Virus record (IMG/VR): IMGVR_UViG_3300025483_000079
Coordinates: 1-23,226 of that record
DNA from: a virus
Length of the DNA: 23,226 nt
Reading direction: 5' to 3' (one strand)
Position numbers and translations under genes: made by a program. Below the pieces are notes generated by a model. It had not been told where the DNA came from, searched no databases, and worked only from the letters and a program-made list of their open reading frames with translations. Positions 3,520 through 22,674 of the stretch are shown in pieces (the first letter of the stretch is position 1; the number at the start of each line of letters is the position of its first letter).

Positions 3520-4071
3520 ATGTTTTATCCTACCTTTCTATCTTCATTTTATTGGTCTTTCCAAGTAAATAATTTAGAGCAAATAAAAAAATACGTAGAC
3601 TCTCAAACTGATATCGATAATTCATCATTTAACTGGGGTGATGAATGTTTGATTGATAGAATTGAATTGGATAATGAGGAAATTCTTGATTTAATTCAAC
3701 CATCTATAGAAAAATTTGCAGAAGATTGGAATAGACAACCAGAGATAAAAATTTATAAACCATGGATAAATCTTTACAAGAGAGGATATTATCAAGAAGT
3801 TCATGACCATAGAACTGATTTTGGTGCTACAATAGTATTAAATGATGATGTGAATTTTTCTAAGTTTTATTTTTTTAATAGATATAGTAATTTTGCAAGT
3901 AATAAAGTATTACATTTGTTTAAAAATCTTTCTACACATGATCTATATTATCCTAATGTAAAAGCAGGTACAATAATATTTTTTCCTGGAACAGCACTTC
4001 ATGGAGTTACTGTTCACAAAAGTGATGTAGTACGAAAAACATTGTCATTTAATATAGACATTGTATCATGA
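3520..4071 (+). CDS. 2OG-Fe(II) oxygenase-like protein, first of six (H-x-H type)
   Basis: The 183-residue product resembles the small phage-rich 2OG-FeII_Oxy_5-like group. NLYKRGYYQEVHDH gives candidate iron ligands His95 and His97 in place of the usual HxD, with Asp100 nearby. The distal motif FFPGTALHGV supplies His161, and Arg172 before TLSFNI is placed to bind 2-oxoglutarate. Enzymes of this fold couple 2-oxoglutarate decarboxylation to hydroxylation or demethylation of a substrate; none is evident here. It starts 11 bases after the tRNA-Leu gene and overlaps the next gene by 4 bases (ATGA). The block is visibly more AT-rich than the virion genes. Confidence 0.7.
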   Translation: MFYPTFLSSFYWSFQVNNLEQIKKYVDSQTDIDNSSFNWGDECLIDRIELDNEEILDLIQPSIEKFAEDWNRQPEIKIYKPWINLYKRGYYQEVHDHRTDFGATIVLNDDVNFSKFYFFNRYSNFASNKVLHLFKNLSTHDLYYPNVKAGTIIFFPGTALHGVTVHKSDVVRKTLSFNIDIVS

Positions 4072-4706
4072 AAGTTACTAACTCAAATGATCTAGATAAG
4101 TTTCCATATATTCTTGTGGATAATTTTTATAATCAACAAGAATTAAATGAAATATGGGAAGAATTGGATTATATGTGTAGTCCTAAAAGAATGAATCGAT
4201 CTTCCATTGAAAATGGTGGAGCATGGGATAAAGATGAATATGGCAATAAACAATTATTGAAACATAATTGGACCATGTGGTTAGATCCTTTCTTTGTACA
4301 AAATAGGCAGCATTCAAATATTTTAGGTGTAAACCGAAAGTTATTTCATAATATGCATCTGTTTACCGATCATCCTCATTGGTTAATTAACGATGTTGAT
4401 GCTCTCCAAAAAGACTTCAGTCAAATTGCATACTATGAAGACAGTGATGTTTATAAAGTTCATAGAGATTATTCCAGATTAACATGTCTCACTTGGTTTT
4501 TTCGAGAACCAAAAAAATTTACTGGAGGTAACTTACAATTTCCTTTGTTTGATATTGAGATTGAATGTAAAAACAATAGAATGATTATTTTTCCTGGAGC
4601 AGTTCCCCATGCAGCAACTAAAGTTTGTATGGAAGAAGAACATAGAGGAAAAAAACTTGGAAGGTTTGTAATGGTGCAGTTGCTAAAACTTGACGGAGGT
4701 ATGTAA
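4068..4706 (+). CDS. 2OG-Fe(II) oxygenase-like protein, second of six
   Basis: The 212-residue product has the complete motif set of the superfamily. VHRDYS supplies His132 and Asp134 (HxD), followed by FTGGNLQFP. IIFPGAVPHAAT supplies His181, and GRFVMVQ supplies Arg199 for the 2-oxoglutarate carboxylate. The N-terminus (DKFPYILVDNFYNQQEL) is the typical leader helix region of prolyl-4-hydroxylase-like proteins. It overlaps the previous gene (ATGA) and shares one base with the next, so it belongs to a tightly coupled operon. Substrate unknown. Confidence 0.8.
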   Translation: MKVTNSNDLDKFPYILVDNFYNQQELNEIWEELDYMCSPKRMNRSSIENGGAWDKDEYGNKQLLKHNWTMWLDPFFVQNRQHSNILGVNRKLFHNMHLFTDHPHWLINDVDALQKDFSQIAYYEDSDVYKVHRDYSRLTCLTWFFREPKKFTGGNLQFPLFDIEIECKNNRMIIFPGAVPHAATKVCMEEEHRGKKLGRFVMVQLLKLDGGM

Positions 4707-5281
4707 TGAATTGGAAATCTCTATCTAACTGTAATGAAGTTTTTCAAATATCAAATATTTTTCCTTGGTCATATTACAATACTTTAATTGATGAATTTGA
4801 TTTCAAAAATAATACTATTGTTTGGGATAAAAGAGAACTTAGTGAGCAACCTTTATTTGGTCAACATGAAGATACTAAGTGGAATAATAATGAGTTGGGA
4901 TGGAATTATAAATTCATACACTCCTCTCGTTATGCTGAATATGCACTTAAAAAAATTATAAAAAAGAATGTAAAATTAATTAGAATCAATACCAACTTTC
5001 AATTCTATGGTATGGAATCTGGTTGGCATAATGATTATAATATTCCAGATGAGAATGCCTGGTCACTTGTTACCTATATCAATTCCAAATGGGACTATAC
5101 TTGGGATGGTCAATTTGTTATTCGTACAAAAAATAGAGATTATATTAATGTCAATCCAACTCCAAATGAAGGAGTTTTATTTAATGCCAGTCTAGAACAT
5201 AGAGGTGGCGCTCCTAATAGATATTGTACTGAATGTAGAATGTCACTTGCATTTTTATTCAAAGAGGTGTATAATGATTGA
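4706..5281 (+). CDS. 2OG-Fe(II) oxygenase-like protein, third of six
   Basis: The 191-residue product carries GWHNDYN (His108, Asp110 as HxD), then SLVTYINSKWDYTWDGQF, which matches the double-stranded beta-helix strands after HxD. NASLEHRGGAP supplies His165 and CRMSLAF supplies Arg178. That is the full Fe(II)/2OG ligand set. Its sequence differs clearly from its neighbours, so it is not a recent duplicate. It overlaps the preceding gene by one base and the following one by eight. The coding sequence is especially rich in A. Confidence 0.78.
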   Translation: MNWKSLSNCNEVFQISNIFPWSYYNTLIDEFDFKNNTIVWDKRELSEQPLFGQHEDTKWNNNELGWNYKFIHSSRYAEYALKKIIKKNVKLIRINTNFQFYGMESGWHNDYNIPDENAWSLVTYINSKWDYTWDGQFVIRTKNRDYINVNPTPNEGVLFNASLEHRGGAPNRYCTECRMSLAFLFKEVYND

Positions 5282-5834
5282 TGTTGAGGTTATTGATAAT
5301 TTTTTAGATGCATCTTACATAGATTTCATTGAACAATGGTCTATTGTTGGTTGTAAATGGCAATATAGACCAAATATATCTTCTTACCATATAATGGATA
5401 CTCCAGAGTCTCCTTGGCGTCACGGACTTGCTTTTACTACTCATGATCCAAAAAGAAACTTAGATTTTCAAAATACAAATTCAAGTTTCATGATTCCATT
5501 TATCTTAAAAGTTGAACAAACTTTTGGATTTCAGCAAAATAGTTGTTATCGCAGTAGATTTGATATGACTCTTATATCACCAGAAAATTCAATGCATGAT
5601 GCTCATCAAGATTTTACTTATCCGCACTATGCATCTATTCTCTATATAAATGATAGTGATGGAGATACTGTTATTTACAATGAAACAAAGTTTTGTGAAC
5701 AATTTACAGAAAAACAACGCATATCACCAAAGAAAAATAGACTAGTGGTATTCAATGGGTTATATTTTCACACAGGACATTCTCCAAATAAACACCAAAA
5801 CAGAATTCTTGTAAATAGTAATTATAGCGTATAA
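5274..5834 (+). CDS. 2OG-Fe(II) oxygenase-like protein, fourth of six
   Basis: I start the gene at ATG 5274 (MIDVEVIDNFLD), seven bases after AGAGG and overlapping the previous stop. The longer open frame from 5205 merely overlaps gene three. The 186-residue product has HQDF (His111, Asp113), the strand motif YINDSDGDTVIY, a distal His at 166 or 169 (YFHTGHSP) and Arg177 (NRILVN). The DSDGDTVIY motif is shared with the fifth oxygenase, suggesting these two are closer paralogues. It ends 57 bases before tRNA-Asn. Confidence 0.78.
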   Translation: MIDVEVIDNFLDASYIDFIEQWSIVGCKWQYRPNISSYHIMDTPESPWRHGLAFTTHDPKRNLDFQNTNSSFMIPFILKVEQTFGFQQNSCYRSRFDMTLISPENSMHDAHQDFTYPHYASILYINDSDGDTVIYNETKFCEQFTEKQRISPKKNRLVVFNGLYFHTGHSPNKHQNRILVNSNYSV

Positions 5835-5839
5835 TTTAC

Positions 5840-5880
5840 GGGGGAGTACAAAAGATCTGCATTATAGAAGCAGCGCCCCC
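5840..5880 (+). other. Structured intergenic element before tRNA-Asn
   Basis: GGGGG (5840-5844) can pair with CCCCC (5876-5880), and inside it CTGC (5857-5860) pairs with GCAG (5870-5873). This could be a weak terminator (no T-run follows), a tRNA-processing structure, or a decayed tRNA reduced to an acceptor-like stem and one arm. I cannot tell which. Confidence 0.35.
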
Positions 5881-5891
5881 TAGAATTTTAA

Positions 5892-5964
5892 TCCTCTATA
5901 GCTCAGTTGGTAGAGCAGGTGACTGTTAATCACCCTGTCCCTGGTTCGAGTCCAGGTGGAGGAG
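5892..5964 (+). tRNA. tRNA-Asn (anticodon GUU)
   Basis: The 73-base cloverleaf has acceptor TCCTCTA/TGGAGGA with one T-G wobble and discriminator G at 5964. The D arm is GCTC...GAGC, the anticodon arm is GGTGA-CTGTTAA-TCACC (anticodon GTT), and the T arm is CCTGG-TTCGAGT-CCAGG. CCA is not encoded. It sits between two related oxygenase genes. Confidence 0.95.
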
Positions 5965-5987
5965 TTGTCCATTTTATCATTATTAAT

Positions 5988-6611
5988 ATGACTATTGGTC
6001 TTACAAAACTAAATCATCCCACATTAGGTGAGGTCCTATTTCATAGATGTATGGGTCAGGTTAGCAAAGATAATCAAGATATTATTGAACACCATTTATC
6101 TAAACCAGAATTTAACTGGCAATTTACAAAATCTACTATAGTTGAAGGAACTAATCCTGATGAATTTTCTAAATTTGATGATGTGTCAATTCTTGCACAT
6201 CAATTAGTAATAGATAATCGTTCTTGCTCTGATTATACTAGTCCATTAATTGATCATACTGAAATTAAAGATTTAATCAATAGACATCATTTGTCTGGAG
6301 AAATTTTACGTGCTCAGGTTAATTTATTTGTAAAACGTGATAAAGTTATAAATCCATGTCCTCACATTGATATCCGTTCTGTACCTCACATCGGCATTTT
6401 ATATTATGTGAATGATGCTGATGGTGATACAGTTTTTTATGATCGTTCTGAATATGATTCAAATGAAGAACTTGGTCTTATGAAAGAATGGAGGAGAGAA
6501 TCTCCAAAGAGGGGTGATATTTTAATTTTTGATGGTAGAATATATCATAGTCCATCTTGTCCAGTTGAAGCAACTCATAGGATTAGTGTTAACTTTGATA
6601 TGTTAAAATGA
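5988..6611 (+). CDS. 2OG-Fe(II) oxygenase-like protein, fifth of six
   Basis: The ATG at 5988 is the first start outside the tRNA; the open frame upstream only reads through the tRNA gene. The 207-residue product has PHIDIR (His126, Asp128), then YYVNDADGDTVFY, which nearly repeats the equivalent strand of gene four. GRIYHSPSCP supplies His187 and HRISVNF supplies Arg198. No clear ribosome binding site is visible. It overlaps by four bases (ATGA) a longer open frame that continues into the next small gene. Confidence 0.78.
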   Translation: MTIGLTKLNHPTLGEVLFHRCMGQVSKDNQDIIEHHLSKPEFNWQFTKSTIVEGTNPDEFSKFDDVSILAHQLVIDNRSCSDYTSPLIDHTEIKDLINRHHLSGEILRAQVNLFVKRDKVINPCPHIDIRSVPHIGILYYVNDADGDTVFYDRSEYDSNEELGLMKEWRRESPKRGDILIFDGRIYHSPSCPVEATHRISVNFDMLK

Positions 6612-6647
6612 ATTATCAATATCCTCTTTATGCACCATATTGGAAGG

Positions 6648-6676
6648 TTGACGCTTTCAAAAAATCATGGTACAAT
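6648..6676 (+). promoter_or_regulatory. Sigma70-type promoter before the 6698 gene
   Basis: TTGACG (6648-6653) and TACAAT (6671-6676) are separated by exactly 17 bases. Transcription would start near 6683, about 15 bases before the ATG at 6698. This supports 6698 rather than 6608 as the start of the downstream gene. Unlike other promoters here, its -35 box is not in a hairpin loop. Confidence 0.65.
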
Positions 6677-6697
6677 ACACTCAGTTCCCTGTTTAAG

Positions 6698-6985
6698 ATG
6701 ATTAATGTCAAAGACAACGAAGATGGTTCCTTCGAAATCCAGTGGGATGAAAACGATCCAGAAGAAAGTATCCTCAACGACTGGACAAAAGAAGACTTCA
6801 CAAACTTCTTGCGTTACTGTGCTCAACGTGAAAACTCAGAAGAATTTGGAGAAGAATCTAAAGAAACTTACTACAACTCAGAAAGCGAAGGTAAAGAAAA
6901 CTACTACACAAACCAAGACCCGTACACCCAAGCGATCAACAAAGAAACCTTTAGAATTGAAGGTGATGAACTCTCGGAAGATTGA
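6698..6985 (+). CDS. Small acidic protein with WDEND motif
   Basis: The 95-residue product starts MINVKDNEDGSFEIQWDEND, continues EESILNDWTKEDFTNFL and ends in an acidic, Asn/Tyr-rich tail. I chose ATG 6698 because a good promoter lies just upstream. A start at 6608 would add 30 residues, would overlap the oxygenase stop as ATGA and cannot be excluded. The gene uses more C-ending codons than the AT-rich oxygenases beside it, as if of different origin. Function unknown; the WDEND motif recurs in the 18277 gene. Confidence 0.7.
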   Translation: MINVKDNEDGSFEIQWDENDPEESILNDWTKEDFTNFLRYCAQRENSEEFGEESKETYYNSESEGKENYYTNQDPYTQAINKETFRIEGDELSED

Positions 6986-7133
6986 ATTCTTTCCTTGGGT
7001 TGAAACATTTCCTATCTTTTTTATGGATGAGGCAGAGAACAAAAAATGTTGGTTCACATGCATTGAACATGCACAAAAATATTTGAATAGGCATCAACCT
7101 AAGTATAAATGTTATCAATATACAGGAAATTAA
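6966..7133 (+). CDS. Small protein of unknown function, 55 residues
   Basis: ATG 6966 overlaps the end of the previous gene by 20 bases and has AAGG close upstream. The product (MNSRKIEFFPWVETFPIFFM, then ENKKCWFTCIEHAQKYLNRH) is Cys/Trp/Phe-rich and has a protein-like composition, unlike the Lys/Thr-rich stretch that the same frame gives upstream, which I reject. No function can be assigned. Confidence 0.55.
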   Translation: MNSRKIEFFPWVETFPIFFMDEAENKKCWFTCIEHAQKYLNRHQPKYKCYQYTGN

Positions 7134-7139
7134 ATTATT

Positions 7140-7730
7140 ATGGGTGAAGGATTCCCTAACAAAGGAGTTTATTATGTTCCATCAAAATTACCAAAATATC
7201 TTATAGAACTGATGAAGGGTTATTGTGATAATCTGAATTATTCTTACGGTGAAGTTTATGCTGAAGATAAAGATAATTCAATTATACGCGATAGTGTTAG
7301 AAAATCTAAAGTTGCATGGATTAATTTTGACGAATGGATTCCTGGTATTTTGCATAATATGATGATTTCAGCAAATCAAATGCATTTTAAATATGATCTC
7401 AGACATTTCAATGGTCAAATACAATCTACTGTTTACGAGGGAGGTGAAAAATCTTTCTATAGTTGGCATGTTGATGGTGGAAGAACTGGGGTATTTGATG
7501 GAGTGGAAATAGAGAGGAAACTATCAATATCATTAATTCTTAGTGAACCTGATGAATATGAGGGTGGTGAATTGCAATTTAGTTACTATAGCAAACATCA
7601 CTCTACTGGCAAACCACCTGCTGGCACAGCAGTTATTTTTCCTTCCTGGTTACCTCATAGAGTTAGACCAGTTAAGTCTGGTATAAGACATTCTTTAGTT
7701 GCTTGGATGGATGGACCTCTCTTTAAATAA
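7140..7730 (+). CDS. PKHD / prolyl-4-hydroxylase-like 2OG-Fe(II) oxygenase, sixth of six
   Basis: The 196-residue product is the most canonical oxygenase here. SFYSWHVDGG supplies His110 and Asp112. RKLSISLILSEPDEYEGGEL is the hallmark strand block of PKHD-type hydroxylases. VIFPSWLPHRVRPVKSGIRHSLVAWMDGP supplies His173 and Arg183. This family hydroxylates protein side chains, often proline, or small molecules; the target here is unknown. It is separated from the first five by two small genes and has its own ATG six bases after the preceding stop. Its last 20 bases overlap the next gene. Confidence 0.87.
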   Translation: MGEGFPNKGVYYVPSKLPKYLIELMKGYCDNLNYSYGEVYAEDKDNSIIRDSVRKSKVAWINFDEWIPGILHNMMISANQMHFKYDLRHFNGQIQSTVYEGGEKSFYSWHVDGGRTGVFDGVEIERKLSISLILSEPDEYEGGELQFSYYSKHHSTGKPPAGTAVIFPSWLPHRVRPVKSGIRHSLVAWMDGPLFK

Positions 7731-18302: not shown

Positions 18303-18423
18303 AGATTTCAAGGTTTCTTGGGACGAGAATGATCAGGTTCAAGTTCAAGAAGATGAATGGATTTCCTCAGTGATTGGCACTGAACAAGATGCAATCTATG
18401 ATGTTCTTGCCGAGATTGAATGA
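18277..18423 (+). CDS. Very small acidic protein, 48 residues, WDEND motif
   Basis: ATG 18277 (MDSVSMYDEDFKVSWDEND) lies inside the previous gene; ATG 18292 is an alternative. Strongly acidic, with the WDEND motif also present in the 6698 product. The stop overlaps the next start (ATGA). Probably a member of the same small phage protein family; function unknown. Confidence 0.55.
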   Translation: MDSVSMYDEDFKVSWDENDQVQVQEDEWISSVIGTEQDAIYDVLAEIE

Positions 18424-18581
18424 ACAACAACAATCGCTACAAAGTTTGTTGGACTAGACCTAAATCAAAAAATGGATTCTATTCACAACAACAAGTAATC
18501 GTCTTTGGTCTTGATTCTGTGCAACATGTTATCGAAAATGTAGTGCCAGAGGGTCAAGGTTGGGATGTTATACCAATGTGA
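18420..18581 (+). CDS. Very small protein, 53 residues
   Basis: ATG 18420 overlaps the previous stop. The product (MNNNNRYKVCWTRPKSKNGF... VIVFGLDSVQHVIENVVPEG) looks like a small beta-beta-alpha domain ending GWDVIPM. Its stop codon is the first element of the stem-loop/promoter module that follows. Confidence 0.55.
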   Translation: MNNNNRYKVCWTRPKSKNGFYSQQQVIVFGLDSVQHVIENVVPEGQGWDVIPM

Positions 18582-18643
18582 CAGTCACCGAACTGGAGCA
18601 GCACCCTTGACGGGGTGCTTTTTTTATGCCATACTGTATACAG
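18579..18643 (+). promoter_or_regulatory. Combined terminator-promoter module before the first R-M unit
   Basis: It starts at the stop codon with GTGACAGTCACCGAACTG, a partial inverted repeat. TTGACG (18607-18612) forms the loop of the hairpin GCACCC/GGGTGC. The spacer holds the hairpin arm and seven T, and CATACT (18630-18635) lies exactly 17 bases after the -35 box. CTGTATACAG (18634-18643), a perfect 10-base palindrome, overlaps the -10 box and likely start point and could be an operator. It drives the gene at 18657. Confidence 0.8.
18601..18625 (+). terminator. Hairpin terminator with -35 box as loop
   Basis: Stem GCACCC (18601-18606) and GGGTGC (18613-18618), loop TTGACG, followed by seven T (18619-18625). 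A classical rho-independent shape. Confidence 0.85.
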
Positions 18644-18656
18644 GTTAAACAAAGCA

Positions 18657-19283
18657 ATGCCACTCACCGCTGAACAAGGTTACAAGATCAGAGAAGAGTA
18701 TTCTGACATCAAAGAAAAGGCAGTTTGTGATGCACATGGTCTGACACAAGTTGGAGGTTCACGCACTAAAATTGATGGTACTGATGGCGTTAAGAATAAG
18801 AGCATCAAGAATATGTCAGGATCTTCTACACAGGTTCATCTCACAACACAGAAACATTTCATCGAGATGTTAAACATCAGTGGTGATGCTGCTGAGTTCA
18901 TTGCACATTTCTGTGGCAGTGTAGGTTATAACTACAATGGCAAAGATCGCCGTACTATCAAACAGATTGATACGGTGCAGGTTGATGCTTTCAAAGAGTT
19001 CCTTAATACAAACAAGGCAAAAGTTGTCGATCTTATTATTCGCAATGGATTCGACATCACGTCAGTTGTAATTAAGAATACAAAGACAGATGAAGAGTTG
19101 GAGTTGACCTATCAACAGATTTGTGATAAGATTAAGGATGCACAATGGGTCTTCCTCAGTGGTGGTATTCACTTGAAAAATGCTGAAGGTAAGAGTTACT
19201 TTCACTTTCAGCGTGAGGGTAAAAAGAAACTGAGCAATCGTCACAATGTCTTGTGGCATATTCACCGTAACTTGTTCGTATGA
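18657..19283 (+). CDS. Putative restriction endonuclease paired with TSPPY methyltransferase
   Basis: I start at ATG 18657; the frame open from 18615 runs through the promoter. The 208-residue product has a mixed region KIDGTDGVKNKSIKN (residues 38-52) that could hold a D...xK-type metal site, followed by MSGSSTQVHLTTQKHFIEML. Its C-terminal GIHLKNAEGKSYFHFQREGK and NRHNVLWHIHRN recall the closing strands of some type II restriction enzymes. The gene overlaps a DNA methyltransferase by four bases, the usual restriction-modification arrangement. The nuclease call rests mostly on this context and weak motifs. Alternatives are a methyltransferase accessory or an unrelated DNA-binding protein. 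Confidence 0.5.
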   Translation: MPLTAEQGYKIREEYSDIKEKAVCDAHGLTQVGGSRTKIDGTDGVKNKSIKNMSGSSTQVHLTTQKHFIEMLNISGDAAEFIAHFCGSVGYNYNGKDRRTIKQIDTVQVDAFKEFLNTNKAKVVDLIIRNGFDITSVVIKNTKTDEELELTYQQICDKIKDAQWVFLSGGIHLKNAEGKSYFHFQREGKKKLSNRHNVLWHIHRNLFV

Positions 19284-20008
19284 TTATCAATAAAGATTGC
19301 ATCGAAGGTATGAAAGAGATGGAAGATAATTCCATCAATACTATTGTCACATCCCCTCCATATAATAAGAAGGGATTACTTGGTAAGGTGAAGCAAGGTA
19401 ATCAGATCTGGGGTAAGTTTCAGATTGATTACAACACTTATGGTGACGATATGCCTGAAGATCAGTATCAGGCATGGATGGTAGAGTTTCTCAATCAGTG
19501 TCATCGTATTATTAAACCTGATGGTTCTATCTTCTTCAATCACAAACCAAGACGATATAAGAATAGATGTTATCTTCCCACAGACTTCATCAGTCAGAGT
19601 GATGCTCAACTCTATCAACTGATCATCTGGGATAGACGCAACTCACCAAATATCAGGAATGATGTACTTGTGCCATGCACAGAGCATATCTATTGGTTCT
19701 GTAAAAAGAAACCGAAAGTATTTCGTGATGCCATAGATCCTGCATACAAAGGTGAAGTATGGGTGATCAATCCTGAACGACAGAAACAACATCCAGCACC
19801 ATTTCCACCGCAATTAGTAAAGAACTGCATCCAACTCACTACTGAGAAGGGTGACGTTGTTTTGGATCCTTTCATGGGATCAGGCACAACTGCCCTAATT
19901 GCGACAGAATGTAACAGAAGTTGGATTGGGTTTGACATTGACGAAAAGTATGCTAATCTAACTAAAGAAAGAACCAATCAAACTAATCTGAATCACATTC
20001 TTAAATGA
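19280..20008 (+). CDS. DNA methyltransferase, beta-class, TSPPY type (probably N4-cytosine)
   Basis: The 242-residue product transfers a methyl group from S-adenosylmethionine to an exocyclic base amine. Motif IV TSPPYN is at 24-29, and motif I DPFMGSGTT at 196-204, followed by GFDIDEKY. The order IV-before-I is the beta arrangement. An S rather than D before PPY favours N4-cytosine over N6-adenine, though this is not decisive. HPAPFPPQLVKNC (171-183) fits motif X. It overlaps the putative nuclease upstream and the ParB-like gene downstream, each as ATGA, so the three are one translation unit. Confidence 0.9.
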   Translation: MIINKDCIEGMKEMEDNSINTIVTSPPYNKKGLLGKVKQGNQIWGKFQIDYNTYGDDMPEDQYQAWMVEFLNQCHRIIKPDGSIFFNHKPRRYKNRCYLPTDFISQSDAQLYQLIIWDRRNSPNIRNDVLVPCTEHIYWFCKKKPKVFRDAIDPAYKGEVWVINPERQKQHPAPFPPQLVKNCIQLTTEKGDVVLDPFMGSGTTALIATECNRSWIGFDIDEKYANLTKERTNQTNLNHILK

Positions 20009-21054
20009 CATTTCTCCAAAATCTTTCAAATACACTTCCTTGTCAATACTTTGACAATCCTGACAATAAAGTAAATCTCAAAGATCCAGACAACTGGACA
20101 TTTCCTGTAACAGATTTGGGGATTGATGGTATCGAGATTCTACACAAACAATATGGTCTGTTTAAGAACACAAATGACGATAACATTGGTCGTGCAGAAG
20201 GTACTGATCCTGCACAAGTCCTTATTGTTAGAGAAGATGTAGAAGAAAATGGAGTTGATCCTACTCAACCTCCAGTTTTTGTTGATGTAGATACTAATGA
20301 TTTGGTGACTGGTGATCATCGAAAGCAGACAGGTATTCAAGGTTGGATGTTTCAATATGTTCGCTGTCGTGATGCTTGGGCACGCAAACGCCTCGCCAAA
20401 GCACTCAACAATGGGCGTCAATTTCATCAGAAAAACAATAGTGTAGAGGATATTAAAGAGCATATTAAGTATGGTATTGCCAATGGTCATTTGACTACTG
20501 AGCAGGAGATTGAGGATGAAATTAACATGCAATCTAATAACTCTTTGCGAAAGAATCATCGTTCCAATGTTATGAGTGAGATGATTAGTTTCATTCATCA
20601 GACTGGTGCCACAGTTTCACTCAATCGCTATCGCACTTTTACTGACGATAGTTACAATACTTTTGTCGAAAACTCTTCCTCTGACTATAAGAAAGAGGTG
20701 ATTGATGATTCAGAATCCAATACTTATTACTATGGTTCTTCTGGTACATCTATCTCCAATGTGTTAACTCCTGCATCAAAGATTGATCCTACTAGTGAGA
20801 AACCATATCTGAATGTTGTTGCCTCTGTTACTACTCCCAGCACCAAGCATCCGCTAATTAAGAAGCGCATGGATATTCATGAGTATCATCTCAAGCAAAT
20901 CTCTTTGAAACTTGATAAACTTGGGATCTATAAGTTCCATCATGGTTGTTATCCTTGGGAACATCGTGACTGCCGTCATGCTTTTCCTGCACAAGATCAC
21001 ATGCAAGAAGACGTAAACGGCGGTGAATTTATTGAATACAATGATATCAAGTGA
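20005..21054 (+). CDS. ParB-like domain protein in the first R-M unit
   Basis: The 349-residue product has an N-terminal part (about 65-115) ending PVFVDVDTNDLVTGDHRKQTG, which resembles the catalytic or nucleotide-binding box of ParB/sulfiredoxin-fold proteins (GxHR). Next come a Lys/Arg-rich helical stretch and a middle rich in Ser, Thr and Asp. The C-terminal HHGCYPWEHRDCRHAFPAQD is dense in His and Cys, as in a metal site. Phage ParB-like proteins include nucleases and DNA-binding regulators. Overlap with the methyltransferase suggests a restriction, regulatory or modification-related job. Family assignment is moderate, role unknown. Confidence 0.55.
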   Translation: MTFLQNLSNTLPCQYFDNPDNKVNLKDPDNWTFPVTDLGIDGIEILHKQYGLFKNTNDDNIGRAEGTDPAQVLIVREDVEENGVDPTQPPVFVDVDTNDLVTGDHRKQTGIQGWMFQYVRCRDAWARKRLAKALNNGRQFHQKNNSVEDIKEHIKYGIANGHLTTEQEIEDEINMQSNNSLRKNHRSNVMSEMISFIHQTGATVSLNRYRTFTDDSYNTFVENSSSDYKKEVIDDSESNTYYYGSSGTSISNVLTPASKIDPTSEKPYLNVVASVTTPSTKHPLIKKRMDIHEYHLKQISLKLDKLGIYKFHHGCYPWEHRDCRHAFPAQDHMQEDVNGGEFIEYNDIK

Positions 21055-21111
21055 CAGTCGCTGAACTGGTCCAGACCCCTTGACAGGGGCGCTTTTTTCA
21101 TGTATTATAAT
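21052..21111 (+). promoter_or_regulatory. Combined terminator-promoter module before the second R-M unit
   Basis: It starts at the stop codon with GTGACAGTCGCTGAACTGG, very close to the 18579 copy. TTGACA (21080-21085) is the loop of CCCC/GGGG. TATTAT (21103-21108) is exactly 17 bases away, and an overlapping perfect TATAAT (21106-21111) is 20 bases away. The consensus -35 box suggests strong early expression. Confidence 0.82.
21076..21098 (+). terminator. Hairpin terminator with -35 box as loop
   Basis: Stem CCCC (21076-21079)/GGGG (21086-21089), loop TTGACA, then CGC and six T (21093-21098). The stem is shorter than in the 17208 and 18601 copies, so termination may be partial. Confidence 0.65.
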
Positions 21112-21136
21112 AGTATCAAAGGAACCCACCCCACCT

Positions 21137-21673
21137 ATGTTTGACTCTATCTTTGCAGATGGTTCTCTTCGTGATTACATTGATAGCAACCTCCAAGATC
21201 CTTGGAAGGGCACAAACTTTGAGGGTTATGTATTCCTTTCACCTAAGCAAAAGGGTGAGTTGGGTGAAAGATTCGTGTCTAACTTGATGAATAATCTTGG
21301 ACACAAAGTTGAACGTGCAGCAACATCTACCGCAGGACATGATCGCGTTATTAGTAAAATACTGACAGAGATTAAGTTTGCTCTTGCTACTCGTAACAAG
21401 AAAGGTGGCGTGACTGTTGATAAGTTCATCATCAATCATGTCTCTGTAGGTAAAGATTGGGAGCGTCTTATCTTCTGTGGTATCAACCCTGATGAGAAAG
21501 ATGCTCGCATTGTGTTCATCACCAAAGCAGACTTTGAAGCACACTTGAAGAGTGATAAGTGCTATTTCAATGTGCAGCAAGGTGGTAAGAAAGTTGGCAA
21601 CGATGACTACATTTGCACAAATGTTGCTGCTCTGCTAGAATGTGACTTCGTGAAGAATATTGCTGAATGGTGA
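21137..21673 (+). CDS. PD-(D/E)xK-like nuclease, putative restriction enzyme
   Basis: ATG 21137 follows AAAGGA; the frame open to 21080 lies in the promoter. The 178-residue product has SPKQKGELGERFVSNLM (Glu in the first helix), then AGHDRVISKILTEIKFALA, in which Asp69 and Glu78-Ile-Lys80 fit the D...ExK active site of PD-(D/E)xK nucleases. The rest is mixed alpha/beta with a conserved-looking DWERLIFCGINPDEKD strand region. It overlaps a DNA methyltransferase by seven bases, so the pair looks like a compact type II restriction-modification system. Degradation of host or competitor DNA is the inferred role. Confidence 0.7.
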   Translation: MFDSIFADGSLRDYIDSNLQDPWKGTNFEGYVFLSPKQKGELGERFVSNLMNNLGHKVERAATSTAGHDRVISKILTEIKFALATRNKKGGVTVDKFIINHVSVGKDWERLIFCGINPDEKDARIVFITKADFEAHLKSDKCYFNVQQGGKKVGNDDYICTNVAALLECDFVKNIAEW

Positions 21674-22404
21674 ATTTACTACTGGGTGATTGTTTAGATC
21701 TTCTGCCTACGATTGCAGATGATAGCATCGACATGCTGCTGGTAGATTTGCCCTACGGTACAACTGCCTGCAAGTGGGATAGTATTATCCCTCTAGACAA
21801 GTTGTGGGAGCAATACAACAGAATCTGTAAAGAAAATGCGGCAATGGTATTCACTGCTGCACAACCTTTCACTACAATTCTTGCTGCTTCAAATATCAAG
21901 AACCTAAAGTATGAATGGATATGGGAGAAACCGCAGGGAACTAACCCCATGAATGCCAAAGTTATGCCTCTTAAGAGTCATGAAAACATCCTGGTATTTT
22001 ATAGAAAGAAACCAACATATAACCCTCAAATGTGGTATTCAACTCCGTACAGTGGGTTTAAGTCTGACACTGCAAAGATTGGCGAAGTTTATGGAGAAGC
22101 AAAATCTAAGCATCGGGACAACCCTGAGGGGTCTCGCTACCCTAAGACCGTCTTAAAATACAAGCAAGAGAAGGGTTTACATCCAACACAGAAACCTGTG
22201 CCACTAATGGAGTATTTGATCAAAACATATACTCATAAAGGTGACACAGTGCTGGATAATACCATGGGTAGTGGTACAACAGGCGTTGCATGTGTCAATA
22301 CAGATAGAAACTTCGTTGGAATCGAGATGGATGAGAAATATTTTAATGAAGCACAAACCCGTATCGGATCGCTAAAAAATCCTCTCACTGACCTGTTCAT
22401 GTGA
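21667..22404 (+). CDS. DNA methyltransferase, beta-class, DLPY type (probably N6-adenine)
   Basis: The 245-residue product opens with MVNLLLGDCLDLLPTIADDS and motif IV DLPYGTT (27-33), typical of N6-adenine or related methyltransferases. HPTQKPVPLMEYLI (172-185) is motif X, and DNTMGSGTTGVAC (197-209) is motif I followed by GIEMDEKYF. The IV-X-I order is the beta arrangement. No target recognition domain can be identified. It is translationally coupled to the PD-(D/E)xK protein and would protect phage DNA from it. As an orphan it could instead serve regulation or evasion of host enzymes. Confidence 0.9.
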   Translation: MVNLLLGDCLDLLPTIADDSIDMLLVDLPYGTTACKWDSIIPLDKLWEQYNRICKENAAMVFTAAQPFTTILAASNIKNLKYEWIWEKPQGTNPMNAKVMPLKSHENILVFYRKKPTYNPQMWYSTPYSGFKSDTAKIGEVYGEAKSKHRDNPEGSRYPKTVLKYKQEKGLHPTQKPVPLMEYLIKTYTHKGDTVLDNTMGSGTTGVACVNTDRNFVGIEMDEKYFNEAQTRIGSLKNPLTDLFM

Positions 22405-22458
22405 CAGTTGGTCAAACTGTCCACTAAACCCCCACAGGGCACCAAAATCGTGTATATT
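22402..22458 (+). promoter_or_regulatory. Module copy after the second R-M unit, decayed -35 box
   Basis: It starts at the stop codon. GACAGTT (22403-22409) and AACTGTC (22415-22421) form a perfect 7-base-pair stem with loop GGTCA. The segment aligned with CCCTTGACAGGG reads CCCCCACAGGG, so the -35 box is lost or poor (CCCACA). TATATT (22453-22458) remains as a -10 box. A weak promoter for the gene at 22483 is possible. Confidence 0.55.
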
Positions 22459-22482
22459 AAGAGAGTCAAAGGAATTCAACCG

Positions 22483-22674
22483 ATGCGAACCGTCACCAAA
22501 GCACAAGCACTAGAGCAATTCCGTTACAATTGGCAAGTAATTGTTAAACAACATCCACGCCTGAAAAATGACAAAGTTTGGAAGCGTGAAGAGTGGGGAA
22601 TGTTCACTGATTCACTTTGTAAGGAGGGTTATATCACCATGAAAAAGTATGAGTCTTGGAGCAACCCTTTCTGA
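22483..22674 (+). CDS. Small basic protein, 63 residues
   Basis: ATG 22483 lies ten bases after AAAGGA; the upstream frame to 22408 is inside the promoter module. The product (MRTVTKAQALEQFRYNWQVI... WKREEWGMFTDSLCKEGYIT) is helical and rich in Trp, Lys and Arg. No function recognised. It shares a base with the next start (TGATG). Confidence 0.65.
   Translation: MRTVTKAQALEQFRYNWQVIVKQHPRLKNDKVWKREEWGMFTDSLCKEGYITMKKYESWSNPF

What the first reader, a model, noticed from the sequence alone, without database searches (positions are those of the whole stretch)
18579..22458. Two restriction-modification-like units, each bracketed by the repeat module
Nuclease-like + methyltransferase (+ ParB-like) and nuclease-like + methyltransferase lie back to back with repeat modules before, between and after them. 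Orphan methyltransferases are common in cyanophages; two apparently complete units in a lytic-type phage are not. Homologous recombination between modules could swap whole units. Possible roles are host DNA destruction and attack on co-infecting phages while self DNA is methylated.
Basis: partly seen in the sequence, partly recalled or inferred. Interest (0 to 1): 0.75.

Follow-up and report, generated by a model that had tools for sequence, protein, structure and literature searches.

The report
Swappable restriction-modification units in cyanophages
This virus of marine cyanobacteria carries two separate DNA-cutting-plus-DNA-marking gene pairs in a spot where related viruses carry other such pairs or none, and many relatives that have a cutter without its marker nearby have lost nearly every copy of one four-letter DNA word, which suggests what each cutter cuts.

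Summary
Confirmed and extended. Window 18657-22404 holds nuc1+MT1 (+ a 349-aa protein) and nuc2+MT2. The nuc1 model matches HinP1I (VIA Z 15.4) and MspI (10.0); the nuc2 model is PD-(D/E)XK-like (best Z 9.7) and nuc2 matches a PADLOC Type II REase model (5e-9). Both MTases are PF01555. nuc1 has its MTase type adjacent in 41 of 50 loci, in either order or convergent; nuc2 in 43 of 68. Target words follow from avoidance: loci with nuc2 but no MT2 have zero TCGA in 15 of 19 (paired 5 of 43; neither gene 0 of 93); loci with nuc1 but no MT1 have zero ACGT in 5 of 5 (paired 4 of 40; neither gene 0 of 93). Predicted: nuc1/MT1 = ACGT, nuc2/MT2 = TCGA. Exceptions exist (ACG-2014f, L068). The units sit in a slot that across 59 slot sequences shows 26 contents (empty counted as one), with 10 nuclease-like+MTase pairings (five with clear nuclease support) and 14 empty. 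The 'modules' are terminator/promoter-like punctuation, also found at other genes; exchange breakpoints fall at or in them. Cleavage, methylation and role are untested.

The parts
18420..18581 (+). left flank gene (53 aa, phrog_1078), the conserved upstream border of the slot
   Evidence: PHROG 5e-31; same position in relatives
18579..18656 (+). module C: stop codon, small hairpin, terminator hairpin 18600-18619 with T-run, and overlapping sigma-70-like promoter TTGACG-17-CATACT 18607-18635
18657..19283 (+). nuc1, 208 aa, predicted Type II restriction endonuclease of HinP1I/MspI fold; predicted site ACGT
   Evidence: phrog_25220; model pLDDT 85; HinP1I Foldseek E 3e-10, VIA Z 15.4; invariant E20, D40, S49-I-K51 in 25 sequences; ACGT avoidance
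19280..20008 (+). MT1, 242 aa, DNA methyltransferase (TSPPY near the N-terminus, DPFMGSGTT near the C-terminus); best solved relative a DNA cytosine-N4 methyltransferase
   Evidence: PF01555 3e-44; 8s9m E 2e-65
20005..21054 (+). 349-aa protein with a TGDHR motif (ParB-like only by motif), accessory
   Evidence: no ParB match in Pfam and no credible match in Pfam, NCBIfam or PADLOC; homologs only in the two S-H9-1 records in the phage collection, there without an R-M pair, none in the IMG/VR scan; gone with a scar in S-RIM12 Np_15
21052..21136 (+). module D: stop codon, terminator-like 21076-21089 with overlapping promoter TTGACA-17-TATTAT 21080-21108; right border of the natural swap
   Evidence: its fold is not more stable than shuffles
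21137..21673 (+). nuc2, 178 aa, predicted PD-(D/E)XK Type II restriction endonuclease; predicted site TCGA
   Evidence: phrog_6927; PADLOC REase_II 5e-9; model pLDDT 84.5; Eco15I, NhoI and entry 3ndh matches; invariant E44, D69, E78-I-K80 in 33 sequences; TCGA avoidance
21667..22404 (+). MT2, 245 aa, DNA methyltransferase (DLPYG near the N-terminus, GSGTTG near the C-terminus), probably N6-adenine (inference)
   Evidence: PF01555 1e-30; PADLOC MTase_II 2.5e-85
22402..22482 (+). module E: stop codon, 7-bp hairpin, -10-like TATATT; no T-tailed terminator or promoter match found
22483..22674 (+). right flank gene (phrog_336)

Best explanation
The stretch is two Type II-like restriction-modification units in a cargo slot of a T4-like cyanophage (Kyanoviridae-like). 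nuc1 is a HinP1I/MspI-fold endonuclease predicted to cut ACGT, and MT1 protects the phage's ACGT; nuc2 is a PD-(D/E)XK endonuclease predicted to cut TCGA, and MT2 protects TCGA. Each unit is transcribed from its own host-type promoter module, probably early (inferred). The nucleases then cut unmethylated DNA in the infected cell, meaning the host chromosome and/or rival phages, while the phage's own DNA is methylated (role inferred). In the slot, whole units are exchanged between phages with breakpoints at or inside the terminator/promoter modules (shown by comparison); homologous recombination as the cause is inferred. Most phages found to carry such a nuclease without its MTase beside it are instead safe because the site is almost absent from their DNA. 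Shown by computation: folds, coupling, slot turnover, site avoidance. Not shown: cleavage, methylation, expression time, target in vivo.
For: Folds: nuc1 to HinP1I Z 15.4, rmsd 2.8, 183 aligned, next entries after MspI (10.0) at Z 3.6; nuc2 to restriction enzymes and Holliday resolvases, Z up to 9.7, plus PADLOC REase_II 5e-9. Invariant catalytic-type residues. Coupling: nuc1 with its MTase type adjacent 41 of 50, including 2 with the MTase upstream and 2 convergent; nuc2 43 of 68. Site avoidance with double dissociation: TCGA zero in 15/19 loci with nuc2 alone, 5/43 paired, 0/40 nuc1+MT1, 1/5 nuc1 alone, 0/93 with neither; ACGT zero in 5/5 loci with nuc1 alone, 4/40 paired, 0/19 nuc2 alone, 0/43 nuc2+MT2, 0/93 with neither. 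Whole contigs: TCGA 3 vs 262 expected in 177.7 kb (G001), 0 vs 53 (G005), ACGT 0 vs 97 in 71.6 kb (G003). Syn1 (100 of its 191 kb) vs G001 over 28.9 kb aligned: TCGA 82 vs 3, none conserved, while GATC is 147 vs 134 with 52 conserved. Slot turnover: 26 contents in 59 slot sequences, 40 with a pairing, 14 empty. Natural swap with breaks at window 18579 and 21047. Chimeric modules.
Against: No activity data. 19 of 68 nuc2 loci and 5 of 50 nuc1 loci lack the MTase although there is room on both sides. ACG-2014f carries nuc2 (71%) without an adjacent MTase yet has 61 TCGA in 40.5 kb; its record holds three other MTases far away, none close to MT2. L068 has 16 TCGA. Paired phages also avoid the sites (median 0.11 for ACGT and 0.23 for TCGA against 0.57 and 0.71 with neither; ACGT 15 vs 166 expected in the paired contig G012, TCGA 27 vs 94 in the paired contig G007), so protection by the MTase would be incomplete, or the avoidance has a shared history. 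Loci are not phylogenetically independent: the nuc2-alone loci form 5 lineage groups, the nuc1-alone loci one. nuc1-alone loci also have little TCGA (7 seen against 143 by base composition). L182, nuc1 with almost no readable upstream side, has 7 ACGT. Nuclease-carrying loci and the 'neither' loci differ in clade make-up.
Confidence: 0.8

Rival explanations
1. Anti-host-restriction reading: the MTases matter (they protect phage DNA from host enzymes of the same specificity), the nuclease genes are passengers, and the avoidance of ACGT and TCGA is caused by host restriction enzymes, not by the phage's own nucleases.
For: Strong avoidance of other words (CCGG, AGCT, GGCC) occurs in cyanophage loci without nuc1 or nuc2 and in Syn1, so host-driven avoidance is plausible in general. 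Oliveira 2014 (PMC4176335, passages) reports that solitary MTases far outnumber complete systems in phages.
Against: The avoided word follows the nuclease carried (ACGT with nuc1, TCGA with nuc2), and is strongest when the MTase is absent. The nucleases keep invariant catalytic-type residues.
Confidence: 0.12
2. Pre-adaptation (compatible with the best explanation as to specificity): phages that already lacked TCGA or ACGT for another reason could take up the bare nuclease gene, so purging came first.
For: A lytic phage could hardly acquire an active bare nuclease while holding hundreds of sites (inference). Loci with nuc2 alone fall in several lineage groups.
Against: Paired phages show intermediate avoidance, as expected if purging goes on after acquisition; four nuc2-alone groups with few or no TCGA would all need the same prior lack.
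Confidence: 0.3
3. The nucleases are homing-type or recombination nucleases (Holliday-resolvase-like) and not restriction enzymes.
For: nuc2's model also matches archaeal Hjc resolvases (Z 7.6) and the homing enzyme I-Ssp6803I (Z 7.8). The slot is a place of frequent exchange.
Against: Coupling to an MTase in changed gene order (nuc1), PADLOC REase_II match (nuc2), and loss of one 4-bp palindrome genome-wide fit a short-site restriction enzyme, not a junction resolvase or a long-site homing enzyme. nuc1 is clearly HinP1I-like in fold.
Confidence: 0.06
4. Host-chromosome destruction is the main role, as for chlorovirus restriction enzymes (a question of role, compatible with the enzymology of the best explanation).
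For: Chlorovirus restriction enzymes are packaged and held to degrade host DNA, and were tested and found not responsible for exclusion of other viruses (PMC7019647, passages).
Against: Turnover of specificities in one slot is not needed if the target is only the host (inference); the marseillevirus system spares host DNA and can degrade DNA of related viruses without the system (PMC7253447, passages).
Confidence: 0.4

Closest known systems
HinP1I and MspI Type II restriction endonucleases (G^CGC, C^CGG; sites recalled)
   Same: Fold (Z 15.4 and 10.0); predicted site ACGT has the same central CG; active site of D...x-K type
   Different: No credible match to any Pfam, NCBIfam or PADLOC model; 13-18% identity; S49 where an acidic residue is usual; partner MTase is of PF01555 type
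Chlorovirus restriction-modification systems (e.g. CviAII)
   Same: Virus-encoded REase and MTase side by side; short sites; lytic virus (PMC7019647 passages)
   Different: Virus of a eukaryotic alga; enzymes packaged in virions there, unknown here; no interchangeable slot with terminator/promoter borders known to me (recall, not searched)
Marseillevirus GATC R-M system (mel_015/mel_016)
   Same: Virus-encoded R-M pair whose enzymes can degrade related viral DNA lacking the mark (PMC7253447 passages)
   Different: One GATC system described in those passages; several exchangeable ones here
Cyanophage records already annotated 'restriction endonuclease' + 'DNA adenine methylase' (S-RIM12 RW_04_0709, ACG-2014a), and S-BM3 'restriction endonuclease'
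   Same: First two: same slot, same layout. S-BM3: a distant nuc2 relative (37% over 69%) so named
   Different: First two: a different nuclease (own cluster). nuc1 and the closer nuc2 relatives are 'hypothetical', lie in a record without annotation or are not annotated
Bdelloid rotifer N4CMT (8s9m/8s9n, listed as DNA cytosine-N4 methyltransferase; rotifer origin recalled)
   Same: Closest solved relative of MT1, E 2e-65
   Different: Eukaryotic, not in an R-M pair (recalled)

Membership tests
Type II restriction-modification system | Endonuclease with a restriction-enzyme fold and catalytic residues | tested here: met
Type II restriction-modification system | Cognate DNA MTase encoded beside it | tested here: met
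   PF01555 matches; recurrent adjacency 41 of 50 and 43 of 68
Type II restriction-modification system | Nuclease and MTase recognise the same sequence | tested here: inconclusive
   Sites are purged with the nuclease alone and partly kept with the pair, which points to a shared site but does not prove it; ACG-2014f and L068 depart
Type II restriction-modification system | Cleavage of unmethylated DNA, block by methylation | not testable with these tools
   needs enzymes in hand
HinP1I/MspI-like endonucleases (nuc1) | Shared fold over the whole chain | tested here: met
   Foldseek E 3e-10; VIA Z 15.4, 183 aligned
HinP1I/MspI-like endonucleases (nuc1) | Sequence-profile match to a known REase family | tested here: not met
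   no REase match in Pfam, NCBIfam or PADLOC at E<=1; hence 'HinP1I-like by fold', not filed as a family member by sequence
PD-(D/E)XK superfamily (nuc2) | D...(D/E)-x-K core on the right strands | tested here: met
   D69, E78-I-K80 invariant in 33 sequences, on strands 69-72 and 75-83 of the model; REase_II match
PF01555 N6_N4 DNA methylases (MT1, MT2) | Profile match over the curated cut-off | tested here: met
   151.9 and 107.3 bits against 26.7
ParB (20005-21054) | ParB domain profile match | tested here: not met
   no ParB hit in Pfam at E<=1; motif TGDHR only; profile comparison with another slot protein E 0.07, Prob 0.8 on a scale to 100
Virus-encoded R-M of the chlorovirus kind | Endonuclease carried in the virion | not testable with these tools
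   no proteome data used

The most novel reading that the evidence does not exclude
T4-like cyanophages keep an arsenal slot in which Type II R-M cassettes of several specificities are swapped between phages through terminator/promoter modules, as weapons against co-infecting phages. Cutting a rival at its unmarked sites, followed by recombinational repair from the carrier, would even copy the cassette into the rival (a homing-like spread). Some lineages drop the MTase and become immune by purging the 4-bp site from the whole genome (3 copies left in 177.7 kb), a methylation-free way to bear a restriction enzyme.
Probability: 0.35. Interest if true: 0.88.

Novelty: new variant of a known kind. 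Interest (0 to 1): 0.78.

Why it matters
A survey of 831 phage genomes found only nine R-M systems (PMC4176335, passages), and restriction enzymes are held to occur rarely on phages (PMC4081073, passages). Here 40 of 59 slot sequences carry at least one nuclease-like+MTase pairing (a biased set, since part of the loci were fetched with nuc1 or nuc2 as query). The avoidance signal gives a recognition sequence for uncharacterised nucleases from sequence alone, so the specificities (ACGT, TCGA) can be checked with a digest and long-read methylation calling on isolates on record: S-CAM22, S-RIM12 Np_15, Sf-CH1b (nuc1+MTase) and P-SSM7 (nuc2+MTase). It also makes phage-phage competition through restriction testable in an important marine host system.

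Tried and rejected
Rejected: modules as R-M-specific elements (present at other genes, and as the content of the 71-85 bp empty slots). ParB membership. Bacterial origin: pattern-based scans of genome contigs found no relative of nuc1 or nuc2; these scans reach only fairly close relatives. The S-H9-1 homolog of the 349-aa protein has no R-M neighbour, so that protein is not an obligate part of the unit. A first half-module test with too strict thresholds gave only 4 informative pairs and was repeated with looser ones (0.80/0.66). Solved-structure searches by sequence with the nuc1 and nuc2 alignments gave nothing significant.

Limits of counts: one search kept the best 80 of 134 nuc2 candidates, another the best 80 of 122 helicase candidates. 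Loci with under 80% of the nuclease, duplicates and the window's own copy (L008) were dropped. The 59 slots are distinct by exact sequence, not by phage; near-identical ones count apart. Of the 26 contents one is 'empty', meaning no ORF of 70 aa or more; pairings are counted by presence in the slot, not by adjacency. The 'neither' group (93 of the 105 loci L194-L298) was not freed of overlapping loci of one contig. For the avoidance groups I used 40 of the 41 nuc1+MTase loci (L018, an S-CAM22 record as L002 is, was dropped). Contig G004 looks like a chimera from about 15 kb on (ACGT 0 before, mostly 6-9 per 5 kb after, with a jump in CCGG), so only its first 15 kb was read as nuc1-alone DNA. 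Module pairs are not independent; only gaps of 55-110 bp were used (92 distinct), of which 67 hold TTGAC, TTGCC, TTGCA or T6 and 80 a -10-like word. In the gene panel two labels, p18278 and d22692, are translations in a wrong frame with internal stops; p18278 served with others as an upstream anchor of slots. Of the ten slot nucleases, two have modest support (c15 8e-5, c27 1e-4) and three weak or none (RE_rim, c18, c29); RE_rim is called 'restriction endonuclease' in GenBank only. The MTase of the c4 pairing (c8) has only sub-threshold Pfam matches (0.009-0.012).

Literature: the listings showed no report of such a slot or of phage restriction enzymes with genome-wide loss of their own site; only listings were seen for most papers, and the library lacks most subscription papers, so this is not proof of absence. 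PMC6286503 was searched for six terms with no passage returned; only its title and the start of its abstract were seen.

Full report
WHAT IS THERE. The window is a 23,226-base virus record whose DNA relatives are T4-like cyanophages of the Kyanoviridae. Five intact ORFs fill 18657-22404: nuc1, MT1, a 349-aa protein, nuc2, MT2. nuc1 and MT1, MT1 and the 349-aa gene, and nuc2 and MT2 overlap by a few bases, as in operons. MT1 and MT2 match PF01555 far above the cut-off. MT1's closest solved relative is a DNA cytosine-N4 methyltransferase; MT2 matches a PADLOC Type II MTase model at 2.5e-85.

THE NUCLEASES. nuc1 has no credible match to a curated family, but its model (pLDDT 85, pTM 0.81) matches HinP1I (Foldseek 3e-10; VIA Z 15.4 over 183 residues) and MspI (Z 10.0), with the next entries at 3.6. 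E20, D40 and S49-I-K51 are invariant in 25 sequences. nuc2 matches a PADLOC Type II REase model (5e-9, residues 14-96). Its model (pLDDT 84.5) matches Eco15I, NhoI, the restriction enzyme of entry 3ndh, a homing enzyme, resolvases, DpnI and PvuII at Z 6-10, with no Foldseek match under 0.001 (best 2.5e-3). So the superfamily is clear and the subfamily is not. E44, D69 and E78-I-K80 are invariant in 33 sequences. A distant nuc2 relative in S-BM3 is annotated as a restriction endonuclease.

COUPLING. In IMG/VR and GenBank loci, nuc1 has an MT1-type MTase adjacent in 41 of 50 distinct loci: 37 downstream on the same strand, 2 upstream, 2 convergent. One more lies 1.4 kb away, 5 have none although there is room, and 3 cannot be judged. 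nuc2 has an MT2-type MTase adjacent in 43 of 68, one at 815 bp, 19 none with room, 5 cannot be judged. Pairing that survives changed order and orientation (nuc1) argues for function together.

THE AVOIDANCE SIGNAL. If a phage has the nuclease without the MTase, its own DNA should lack the site. In 19 loci with nuc2 and no MT2, TCGA is absent from 15; in 43 paired loci it is absent from 5, in 40 nuc1+MT1 loci from 0, in 5 nuc1-alone loci from 1, in 93 loci with neither nuclease from 0. For ACGT: absent from 5 of 5 loci with nuc1 alone, 4 of 40 paired, 0 of 19 with nuc2 alone, 0 of 43 nuc2+MT2, 0 of 93 with neither. Of the 16 four-base palindromes, ACGT falls most in nuc1+MT1 loci relative to the 'neither' group (ratio 0.19; next 0.70), and in nuc2+MT2 loci TCGA falls to 0.32. 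AGCT and CCGG have a median of zero in the 'neither' group and give no ratio; GGCC, rare in every group, falls from 0.04 to 0.00 in nuc2+MT2 loci. Whole contigs agree: G001 has 3 TCGA in 177.7 kb against 262 expected, all within 0.9 kb; G005 0 against 53; G003 0 ACGT in 71.6 kb against 97. In these three, TCGA or ACGT is the most under-represented 4-mer, and single-base variants such as TCGT or ACGA stay common. G001 holds no PF01555 or PF00145 MTase and one PF02086. Against Syn1, the best GenBank match of a related nuc2-alone locus, L055, and without nuc2 in the tblastn search, 28.9 kb of alignment (from 100 kb of Syn1) hold 82 TCGA in Syn1 and 3 in G001, none shared, while 52 of 147 GATC are shared. 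The window itself has 22 ACGT and 32 TCGA (Markov expectation 40 and 46), so it would need both MTases.

RESULTS THAT DO NOT FIT NEATLY. ACG-2014f KJ019103 carries nuc2 without an adjacent MTase and has 61 TCGA in 40.5 kb. It has three other MTases about 95-101 kb away; the PF01555 one is only 27% like MT1 and 23% like MT2, so unlinked protection is possible but not shown. L068 has 16 TCGA and an MTase-like neighbour. L093, L095 and L119 have 2-3 TCGA each, in the last 350-1200 bases of the locus. L062 has an MTase-like neighbour yet no TCGA. L182 (7 ACGT) and L033 (2) have nuc1 but cannot be judged for pairing, while L034, also not judgeable, has 0 against 21 expected. The nuc1-alone loci are also poor in TCGA (7 in 39.7 kb). 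Paired phages avoid the sites too, though less, and unevenly: ACGT 194 of 364 expected in G011 but 15 of 166 in G012; TCGA 27 of 94 in G007. Lineages are few: 5 groups for nuc2 alone, 1 for nuc1 alone.

THE SLOT. The border genes (phrog_1078 and neighbours on the left; a helicase, phrog_336 or the next small gene on the right) frame 59 distinct slot sequences in the fetched set, with 26 contents, empty counted as one. 40 carry at least one of ten nuclease-like+MTase pairings, 14 hold no ORF of 70 aa or more, of which eight are only 71-85 bp, and two (the window and S-RIM12 Np_15) hold two pairings. The set is biased, because many loci were fetched with nuc1 or nuc2. Support for the other nucleases: MvaI/BcnI family 1.7e-40 (L224), PADLOC REase 1.3e-15 (L213), PDDEXK_11 2e-10 (L001); modest for L201 (8e-5) and L205 (HNH, 1e-4); weak or none for three. 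The window and IMG/VR contig 3300035228_000540 (L040) are a natural swap: 95% identity ends at window 18579, the first base of module C, and resumes (93%) at 21047, five bases before module D; between them the window has nuc1-MT1-349-aa and the other phage has one different protein, 56% like P-SSM7 gene 052, a family that bears a DG(S/T/N)HR motif. In S-RIM12 Np_15, nuc1-MT1 is 95% identical in DNA, but the 349-aa gene is gone, leaving its first and last few bases.

THE MODULE. Modules C and D are a terminator-like hairpin whose loop lies inside the -35 box (TTGACG, TTGACA) of a promoter with a 17-base spacer and a -10 box. The promoter scan as a whole finds no excess over shuffles (15 vs 17.5), the terminator scan does (11 vs 3.7); module C folds better than shuffles (z -2.0), module D does not (z 0.5). 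So the promoter reading rests on position and recurrence at slot boundaries. Halves move separately: for module pairs with the same downstream but different upstream gene, the right half is more alike than the left in 170 of 194; with the same upstream but different downstream gene, the left half is more alike in 33 of 50; for unrelated pairs the right half is more alike in 1785 of 3156 and the left in 1348 (pairs not independent). S-RIM12 Np_15 joins the left part of the S-RIM12 Sn_07 module, identical through ATACT of the -10 box, to the window's nuc1 leader. This fits exchange by recombination inside modules; it would also arise if any viable gene swap must fall between genes.

ROLE. Two precedents point in opposite directions: chlorovirus enzymes are held to degrade host DNA (PMC7019647 passages), marseillevirus enzymes spare the host and can degrade related viral DNA (PMC7253447 passages). 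Turnover of specificity in one slot fits rivalry between phages better than host destruction, which needs no variety; that is inference.

NOVELTY. R-M systems and virus-encoded R-M are known; phage-encoded ones are rare (nine in 831 phage genomes, PMC4176335 passages), and some GenBank cyanophages already bear a 'restriction endonuclease' next to a methylase. Sullivan et al. 2010 (PMC3037559, passages) list an N6A-methylase among cyanophage genes; the word 'restriction' does not occur in its main text. New here, as far as the searches named under Tried and rejected show, are the modular slot with interchangeable units, the HinP1I-fold phage enzyme, and solitary phage nucleases whose predicted site is almost absent from the phage DNA.

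Noticed in passing
GU071105 (Syn1) 80000-179999, loci L339-L340: GTAC and CCGG are wholly absent in this 100 kb (0 of about 363 and 168 expected by base composition); by the same logic Syn1 may carry, or face, nucleases for these words.
   Followed up: partly
G011 (S-CAM22 contig) and loci L194-L298: CCGG is absent from the 172-kb S-CAM22 contig (0 of 127 expected), and AGCT, CCGG and GGCC are strongly avoided in the 93 loci without nuc1 or nuc2; cause unknown.
   Followed up: no
IMGVR_UViG_3300017917_004309 (G004) near 15 kb: Probable chimeric contig: word usage (ACGT, CCGG) changes abruptly near 15 kb.
   Followed up: partly
S-RIM12 records KX349308, KX349311, KX349324, KX349326, KX349327: nuc1 is present at 99% identity over its full length but no gene is annotated there in these five GenBank records.
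   Followed up: yes
window 22402-22421 and other modules: A hairpin GACAGTT-loop-AACTGTC starts at the stop codon of the upstream gene; similar sequences recur at slot boundaries of relatives. Function unknown.
   Followed up: partly
L170 5934-6953, L174 6459-7580, slot clusters c3, c6, c9, c12, c28: Many slot neighbours are 300-420 aa proteins with a G-x-H-R type motif (DGSHR, DGQHK, NGNHT, DGHGRR) and, where scanned, no credible Pfam match; possibly one ParB/DGQHR-like superfamily linked to DNA modification (name recalled).
   Followed up: partly
window 3520-7730: A run of ORFs that look like 2OG-Fe(II) oxygenases in tandem (by eye).
   Followed up: no
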